DNA from: Pseudomonadota bacterium
GTDB lineage: Bacteria; Desulfobacterota; Binatia; Binatales; Binataceae
Length of the DNA stretch: 64,000 nucleotides
Direction: 5' to 3'
NCBI GenBank assembly: GCA_021324755.1
Contig: JAJPIL010000004.1
Location: 62,001 to 126,000 of the forward strand
Below, piece by piece: positions 44,586 through 44,666 of the stretch (position 1 is its first letter; each line of letters starts with the position of its first letter). Under the pieces are notes generated by a model, which saw only the letters and a list, made by a program, of their open reading frames with translations, did no database searches and had not been told where the DNA came from. Both the position numbers and the translations under genes were made by a program.

Positions 44586-44630
44586 AAAAGAAAAAGGCCC
44601 TCGTGAAGTTAAGCAGACTTCACAAGGGCC
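44586..44630 (-). terminator. Intrinsic terminator in the amiE leader
   Basis: Minus strand GGCCCTTGTGAAGT-CTGCTTA-ACTTCACGAGGGCC (14 bp, one G-U) followed by TTTTTCTTTT. Confidence 0.93.
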
Positions 44631-44666
44631 TCGTTGCCCAATTATTTTTTGCGGCGCCTTTGCCGC
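44586..44666 (-). ncRNA. ANTAR-type antitermination leader of amiE (two hexaloop hairpins plus terminator)
   Basis: Minus strand P1 GCGGC-AAAGGC-GCCGC (44651-44666), 11-nt linker, P2 GGGC-AACGAG-GCCC (44626-44639); both loops AxxGxx; P2 3' arm is part of the terminator 5' arm. Confidence 0.88.

What the first reader, a model, noticed from the sequence alone, without database searches (positions are those of the whole stretch)
44586..44666. ANTAR two-hexaloop antitermination leader between amiR and amiE
Minus strand: P1 GCGGC-AAAGGC-GCCGC, linker AAAAAATAATT, P2 GGGC-AACGAG-GCCC, then terminator GGCCCTTGTGAAGT-CTGCTTA-ACTTCACGAGGGCC-TTTTTCTTTT. P2 and the terminator share GGCCC, so they exclude each other. 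In P. aeruginosa AmiR antiterminates the amiE leader; here the cis-element is directly visible next to its likely regulator.
Basis: partly seen in the sequence, partly recalled or inferred. Interest (0 to 1): 0.82.

Follow-up and report, generated by a model that had tools for sequence, protein, structure and literature searches.

The report
Two AmiR-controlled RNA antitermination switches

Summary
It lies between amiR (44684-45295, AmiR_N + ANTAR) and an aliphatic amidase gene (43422-44453); urtABCDE follow. The ANTAR interpretation is well supported. The same element sits at the same place in the three other genomes of the family that have AmiR, with compensatory changes, and the 38 genomes without AmiR have no hit of comparable score. 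A covariance model trained only on alphaproteobacterial leaders ranks it first in the 3.07-Mb genome. No match occurs in 3000 shuffled windows. New here: a second complete element at 48343-48252, in front of a MetX-like alpha/beta-hydrolase gene just upstream of amiC. The two are the only strict hits in the genome, which has one ANTAR protein. Named Alphaproteobacteria (Roseibium, Mesorhizobium) share this layout: leader, (permease), hydrolase, amiC, amiR, leader(s), urtABCDE/amidase. Mechanism and RNA class are known since 2012, so this is a new member of a known kind; the multi-leader AmiR regulon is a modest extension. Antitermination itself is inferred, not measured.

The parts
44651..44666 (-). 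P1 hairpin of the amiE leader: GCGGC-AAAGGC-GCCGC (A1, G4)
   Evidence: R1 46.3 bits; R2, trained without this clade, 36.5 bits
44640..44650 (-). 11-nt linker between P1 and P2
   Evidence: within the 5-12 nt range of the eut leaders in PMC3369931
44626..44639 (-). P2 hairpin (antiterminator): GGGC-AACGAG-GCCC (A1, G4); its 3' arm is shared with the terminator
44596..44630 (-). intrinsic terminator stem-loop, 14 bp, GGCCCTTGTGAAGT-CTGCTTA-ACTTCACGAGGGCC
   Evidence: compensatory changes in relatives
44586..44595 (-). T-tract TTTTTCTTTT of the terminator
44684..45295 (-). amiR: AmiR_N pseudo-receiver + ANTAR RNA-binding domain, 203 aa; the only ANTAR protein found in the genome
45318..46616 (-). 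amiC: cytoplasmic amide sensor / AmiR inhibitor homologue; no signal peptide seen; true start probably one of the later ATGs, not the TTG at 46616
43422..44453 (-). amiE: aliphatic amidase, first gene behind the leader
41731..43047 (-). urtA-like substrate-binding protein with Tat-type signal (RRTFLKG); below the UrtA cut-off (443 vs 493 bits)
37988..41683 (-). urtB, urtC, urtD, urtE: ABC transporter of the urea/short-amide type
48324..48343 (-). P1 hairpin of a second ANTAR leader: GGATGGC-AACGGA-GCCATCC
   Evidence: R1 38.2 bits; R2 21.1 bits, second-best in the genome
48293..48310 (-). P2 hairpin of the second leader: TTGGGC-AACGAG-GCCCAA (same loop as P2 of the amiE leader); 13-nt linker 48311-48323
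48252..48298 (-). terminator of the second leader: GCCCAAGTGCGAGC-CGGCGGTA-GCTCGCGCCTGGGC (one A.C mismatch) + TTTTTTCTTTT
48356..48384 (-). possible promoter of the second leader: TTGACA-17 nt-TAGTTT (weak -10), just upstream of P1
   Evidence: sequence; TTGACA at similar spacing also precedes P1 in M. retamae L181 and Roseibium L318
47107..48126 (-). MetX-like alpha/beta hydrolase (PRK07581 family), gene behind the second leader; ATG at 48120 likely the true start

Best explanation
This is an AmiC/AmiR amide-responsive regulon with two ANTAR antitermination leaders. Without inducer, cytoplasmic AmiC holds AmiR inactive, so transcripts entering either leader form P1 and then the terminator stem, and RNA polymerase stops before amiE-urtABCDE or before the MetX-like hydrolase gene. 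When a short aliphatic amide binds AmiC, AmiR is released; its two ANTAR domains bind the P1 and P2 hexaloops through A1 and G4, hold P2 closed, and so keep the GCCC arm out of the terminator. Polymerase reads through, and the cell makes the amide uptake system, the amidase and the hydrolase. Because amiC and amiR follow the hydrolase gene with no terminator-like site found between them, read-through at the second leader may also raise AmiC/AmiR (positive feedback). Shown here: sequences, structures, conservation, co-occurrence, gene identities. Inferred: AmiR binding, antitermination, inducer identity, co-transcription and feedback.
For: Exact dual A1/G4 hexaloops with overlapping terminators at two sites, 0 in 3000 shuffled windows. 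The strict pattern hits only these two places in the own genome; reversed-pattern control 0. One ANTAR protein in the genome. In 42 genomes of the family, model hits of 38 bits or more occur only in the 4 with AmiR; the best hit in the other 38 is 27.6 bits. Terminator helix covaries (5 pairs with double changes, 93% of cells paired, 0/500 shuffles for paired cells and covariation score). A model trained only on alphaproteobacterial leaders ranks the two sites first (36.5 bits, E 8.6e-5) and second (21.1 bits, E 0.21) genome-wide. AmiC, AmiR and amidase homology. AmiR keeps K149, E160, Y164, R168, M172, R175 of EutV's RNA contacts. The same multi-leader layout is seen in Roseibium algicola and M. 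retamae.
Against: No expression or binding data. The second leader is weaker in the clade-independent model (E 0.21; the third hit has 18.8 bits against 21.1), so its support rests on the pattern, terminator, identical P2 loop and position. AmiR differs from EutV at R142 (M), N173 (S) and R177 (P). No strong promoter is seen before the amiE leader (TTGACT-17/18 inside the amiR 3' end; promoter-like sites do not exceed chance), so where the leader transcript starts is unknown. The genome is a 29-contig assembly (95.5% complete), so another ANTAR gene could be missing.
Confidence: 0.9

Rival explanations
1. Only a plain intrinsic terminator ending the amiC-amiR transcript, with P1 and P2 arising by chance; amiE-urtABCDE has its own promoter downstream.
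For: The terminator is the stronger fold (-35.5 against -17.5 kcal/mol); about 130 bases separate the T-tract from the amiE start, room for a promoter.
Against: P1 and P2 loops and the closing pairs are conserved in four genomes and in distant Alphaproteobacteria; in the family they occur only with AmiR; the same element stands before a second gene that does not follow amiR; chance is excluded.
Confidence: 0.04
2. The leaders are ANTAR targets, but the acting protein is a different ANTAR regulator, or AmiR acts here at another level such as translation.
For: ANTAR RNAs in actinobacteria are reported to act on translation or transcription (PMC8164766 abstract); the assembly is 95.5% complete.
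Against: Only one ANTAR gene is found, close to both leaders; the elements overlap intrinsic terminators, and the start codons lie about 130 bases further on.
Confidence: 0.05
3. The amiE leader is real, but the MetX-like leader is a coincidental terminator with hairpins and is not AmiR-controlled.
For: Second-ranked only weakly by the clade-independent model (21.1 bits); the three same-family relatives with AmiR showed no MetX-like gene in the stretches examined.
Against: P1 7 bp and P2 6 bp with A1/G4, the same P2 loop AACGAG, an overlapping terminator, no such match in 3000 shuffles, and a leader at the equivalent place, before permease-hydrolase-amiC, in Roseibium and Mesorhizobium.
Confidence: 0.1

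Closest known systems
Pseudomonas aeruginosa amiE leader with AmiC/AmiR (amiECBRS operon)
   Same: AmiC sensor, AmiR antiterminator, aliphatic amidase target, P1/P2 leader with A1/G4 loops overlapping the terminator (PMC3369936, PMC3369931).
   Different: In the cited operon amiE comes first and the regulators follow; here amiC-amiR precede the leader, urtABCDE follow amiE, and a second leader stands before a MetX-like hydrolase upstream of amiC. AmiR is only distantly related (44.7 bits to 1qo0_D) and has Tyr/Arg where P. aeruginosa AmiR has His/Ser at EutV positions 164/168.
Enterococcus faecalis eut leaders with EutV (four leaders, one ANTAR regulator)
   Same: Several dual-hexaloop leaders in one gene cluster served by one ANTAR protein; linker 5-12 nt; same loop rule.
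   Different: EutV is a phosphorylated response regulator (EutW kinase); AmiR has a pseudo-receiver held by AmiC. Target genes differ.
Klebsiella oxytoca nasF leader with NasR
   Same: Dual hexaloop with A1/G4 and terminator.
   Different: Nitrate-sensing NIT-ANTAR fusion; one leader; nitrate assimilation genes.
amiC-amiR-leader-urtABCDE-amidase clusters of Alphaproteobacteria (e.g. Roseibium algicola plasmid NZ_CP019631.1, Mesorhizobium sp. LHD-90)
   Same: Same genes and multi-leader layout, including a leader before the hydrolase (permease in between).
   Different: Amidase last instead of first, extra permease, often tandem leaders after amiR; not described as an ANTAR regulon in the papers found.
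Klebsiella sp. KOS9 plasmid acetamidase operon (PMC13209695)
   Same: amiE, amiC, amiR and ABC transporter genes in one operon.
   Different: Leader RNAs are not mentioned in the passages read; no hydrolase leader described.

Membership tests
ANTAR two-hexaloop antiterminator RNA (Ramesh et al. 2012) | Two hairpins of at least 3 bp with hexanucleotide loops, A at position 1 and G at position 4 in both | tested here: met
   Both leaders
ANTAR two-hexaloop antiterminator RNA (Ramesh et al. 2012) | Short linker (5-12 nt natural in E. faecalis eut; 14 and 3 nt impaired) | tested here: met
   11 nt in the amiE leader; the second leader has 13 nt, one above the natural eut range
ANTAR two-hexaloop antiterminator RNA (Ramesh et al. 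2012) | P2 3' arm overlaps the 5' arm of an intrinsic terminator, so the two exclude each other | tested here: met
   Shared GCCC (amiE leader) and GCCCAA (second leader)
ANTAR two-hexaloop antiterminator RNA (Ramesh et al. 2012) | Conservation of structure across relatives | tested here: met
   P1/terminator 93% paired with double changes in 4 genomes; P1/P2 100% paired over 14 leaders
ANTAR two-hexaloop antiterminator RNA (Ramesh et al. 2012) | Genome encodes an ANTAR protein; occurrence linked to it | tested here: met
   4 of 4 AmiR genomes have strong hits, 0 of 38 without
ANTAR two-hexaloop antiterminator RNA (Ramesh et al. 2012) | Protein binding to both loops and antitermination | not testable with these tools
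   needs gel shift and in vitro transcription or reporters
ANTAR two-hexaloop antiterminator RNA (Ramesh et al. 2012) | Match to an Rfam family (not a defining feature of the class; listed for completeness) | tested here: inconclusive
   No ANTAR family came up; only sub-threshold hits to unrelated families. The absence does not count against membership
AmiC/AmiR regulatory pair | AmiR_N pseudo-receiver + ANTAR protein encoded directly after an amide-binding Peripla_BP_5 protein without signal peptide | tested here: met
   PF21332 + PF03861; AmiC E = 2.7e-97 to 1pea; no signal sequence seen by eye
AmiC/AmiR regulatory pair | AmiC senses amide and releases AmiR | not testable with these tools
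   The YPTPYEGFE segment is identical to P. aeruginosa AmiC; ligand not measured

The most novel reading that the evidence does not exclude
AmiC/AmiR form a multi-leader, self-amplifying regulon conserved between this lineage and Alphaproteobacteria: one leader opens hydrolase-amiC-amiR, one or two more open transporter and amidase, and loop identity drifts together with the ANTAR contact residues (P2 loops starting with T go with AmiRs that have lost Lys149 and Met172).
Probability: 0.4. Interest if true: 0.45.

Novelty: new member of a known kind. Interest (0 to 1): 0.33.

Why it matters
It gives a clean, complete amide regulon with one ANTAR protein and exactly two target RNAs, so protein-RNA specificity can be tested without other targets. 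It links a MetX-like alpha/beta hydrolase of unknown role to amide metabolism. The comparison set suggests that the A1/G4 rule is not universal among AmiR leaders, which makes the question of how ANTAR domains and their loops co-evolve directly testable.

Tried and rejected
Rfam at gathering and relaxed thresholds found no ANTAR family here. Promoter scan: no excess over shuffles, so the TTGACT within amiR was not claimed as a promoter. Of 80 close amidase homologues in other genomes only 4 have an AmiR-like match in the fetched stretch, so proximity to an amidase alone does not predict the leader. AmiR_N search in the own phylum gave mostly sub-threshold unrelated receivers. My first strict terminator filter missed real relatives with long terminator loops and was loosened. 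Relatives in the same class with distant ANTAR proteins (L202, L207, L213) have similar leaders but their targets were not followed up. No structure prediction was run: PDB homologues of AmiC and the amidase align along most of their length and the ANTAR contacts could be read from the alignment.

Full report
Observation. Both loops have A at position 1 and G at position 4. The 3' arm of the second hairpin (GCCC) is part of the 5' arm of the terminator stem, so the two cannot form together. The full segment folds into P1 plus terminator at -38.1 kcal/mol, 5.8 standard deviations below shuffles; without the terminator 3' arm it folds into P1 plus P2 at -17.5 kcal/mol. Folding growing transcripts gives P1, then P2 up to about 65 nt, then the terminator at 70 nt, which is the window in which a protein could act.

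Chance. Counting pairs of A1/G4 hexaloops (stems of at least 4 bp without G-U, linker 5-14) that overlap a terminator of at least 10 pairs, 3000 dinucleotide-preserving shuffles of the window gave none; the real window has two.

Surroundings. The leader lies 17 bases after amiR (AmiR_N + ANTAR domains; closest solved structure P. aeruginosa AmiR). Before amiR lies amiC (closest solved structure P. aeruginosa AmiC, E = 2.7e-97), without a visible signal sequence, whereas its paralogue UrtA has a Tat-type signal. After the leader come an aliphatic amidase gene (NF009802; 2plq) and urtABCDE. amiR is the only ANTAR gene found in the 3.07-Mb genome.

A second element. The shuffle count drew attention to another dual hexaloop at 48343-48252, also minus strand: GGATGGC-AACGGA-GCCATCC, 13 bases, TTGGGC-AACGAG-GCCCAA, then a terminator whose 5' arm is P2's GCCCAA, ending in TTTTTTCTTTT. 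It precedes a MetX-like alpha/beta hydrolase gene (PRK07581 family, 47107-48126), which precedes amiC. Its P2 loop is identical to that of the amiE leader. A strict pattern search of the whole genome finds these two places and no other; the reversed pattern finds none.

Comparison. Within the GTDB family 42 genomes are held. Four have AmiR, and in the other three the element again lies between amiR and the amidase gene. The four sequences keep P1 unchanged and vary the terminator helix with compensatory changes (5 pairs changed on both sides, 93% of cells paired; sliding the partners drops this to about 50% or less). A covariance model of 14 leaders gives hits of 38 bits or more only in these four genomes, two of them in the own genome; the best in the 38 genomes without AmiR is 27.6 bits. 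That model includes the window's sequences, so a second model was built from alphaproteobacterial leaders only. It still ranks the amiE leader first (36.5 bits, E = 8.6e-5) and the hydrolase leader second (21.1 bits, E = 0.21) in the own genome; the second result alone would be weak.

The same layout elsewhere. Mesorhizobium sp. LHD-90 (L273) and the Roseibium algicola plasmid NZ_CP019631.1 match this. In other members of the same group a leader stands directly before amiC (L274, L279-L281; Rhizobium etli plasmid). So a leader upstream of the regulator genes is common, which suggests positive feedback. In the window the terminator scan found no site between the hydrolase and amiC on that strand, so the same is possible but not shown.

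Mechanism. Established work shows that dimeric ANTAR proteins bind both hexaloops, keep P2 closed and prevent the terminator, with A1 and G4 essential (PMC3369931; PMC3369936). In the EutV-RNA structure G4 stacks on Tyr164 and is held by Arg142, Lys149 and Glu160, and Met172 plugs the loop (PMC8934654). The window's AmiR keeps Lys149, Glu160, Tyr164, Arg168, Met172 and Arg175, has Arg for Lys143 and Lys147, and differs at Arg142, Asn173 and Arg177. AmiC homology and the identical YPTPYEGFE segment suggest a short aliphatic amide as inducer; this is inference.

Known or new. The RNA class, its mechanism and the AmiC-AmiR-amidase pairing are known; multi-leader ANTAR regulons are known from eut and were predicted in Desulfotomaculum, and urea transporters were named among predicted targets in 2012. 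An operon of amiE, amiC, amiR and ABC transporter genes was described on a Klebsiella plasmid in 2026. I found no paper describing the multi-leader AmiR regulon with the MetX-like hydrolase, but supplementary tables of the 2012 survey could not be read. I therefore file it as a new member of a known kind.

Limits. No binding, expression or transcript data; the genome is a draft; the host is named only through a same-family relative (a Deltaproteobacteria MAG, L027). Where the amiE leader's transcript starts is open. The terminator covariation rests on four sequences. The leaders used to train the models were picked by eye from scan output, so their loop counts lean towards the known rule.

Noticed in passing
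   Followed up: yes
L161, L165-L169, L171 (AmiR next to other CN_hydrolase or transporter genes): P2 loops start with T instead of A (TATGCA, TGTGCA, TATGTA, TTTGAA, TAGGAA); the AmiR proteins there have lost Lys149 and Met172 (EutV numbering): possible co-evolution of loop and protein.
   Followed up: partly
L160, L170, L172, L192: P2 hexaloops carry A rather than G at position 4 (AACAAG, AAAAAA, AACAAA, AACAAG); in L170 the G4-contacting residues 149 and 160 are also changed (Gln, Ile).
   Followed up: partly
L180, L181, L273, L275, L277-L281, L318-L320: Two dual-hexaloop leader hits, most with a terminator, in tandem between amiR and urtA (about 100-200 bases apart): a possible double attenuator before the transporter operon.
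   Followed up: partly
L321 (Agrobacterium tumefaciens MWF001 plasmid CP129670.1) 8559-8599 and 10602-10641: amiC-amiR flanked by two leader hits, but the genes behind are not amidase/urt: GTP-binding protein, ferredoxin-domain protein, CbtA/CbtB, tubulin-like and CbbQ/NorQ-type proteins. The target pathway is unclear.
   Followed up: no
L181, L102, L083, L318, L320: A cytosine-permease-type (NCS1) gene and the MetX-like hydrolase gene lie close together next to amidase/urtABCDE clusters; function of the pair unknown.
   Followed up: partly
L281 7989-8029: Leader before amiC whose P1 loop has seven bases (AACGGTT) instead of six.
   Followed up: no
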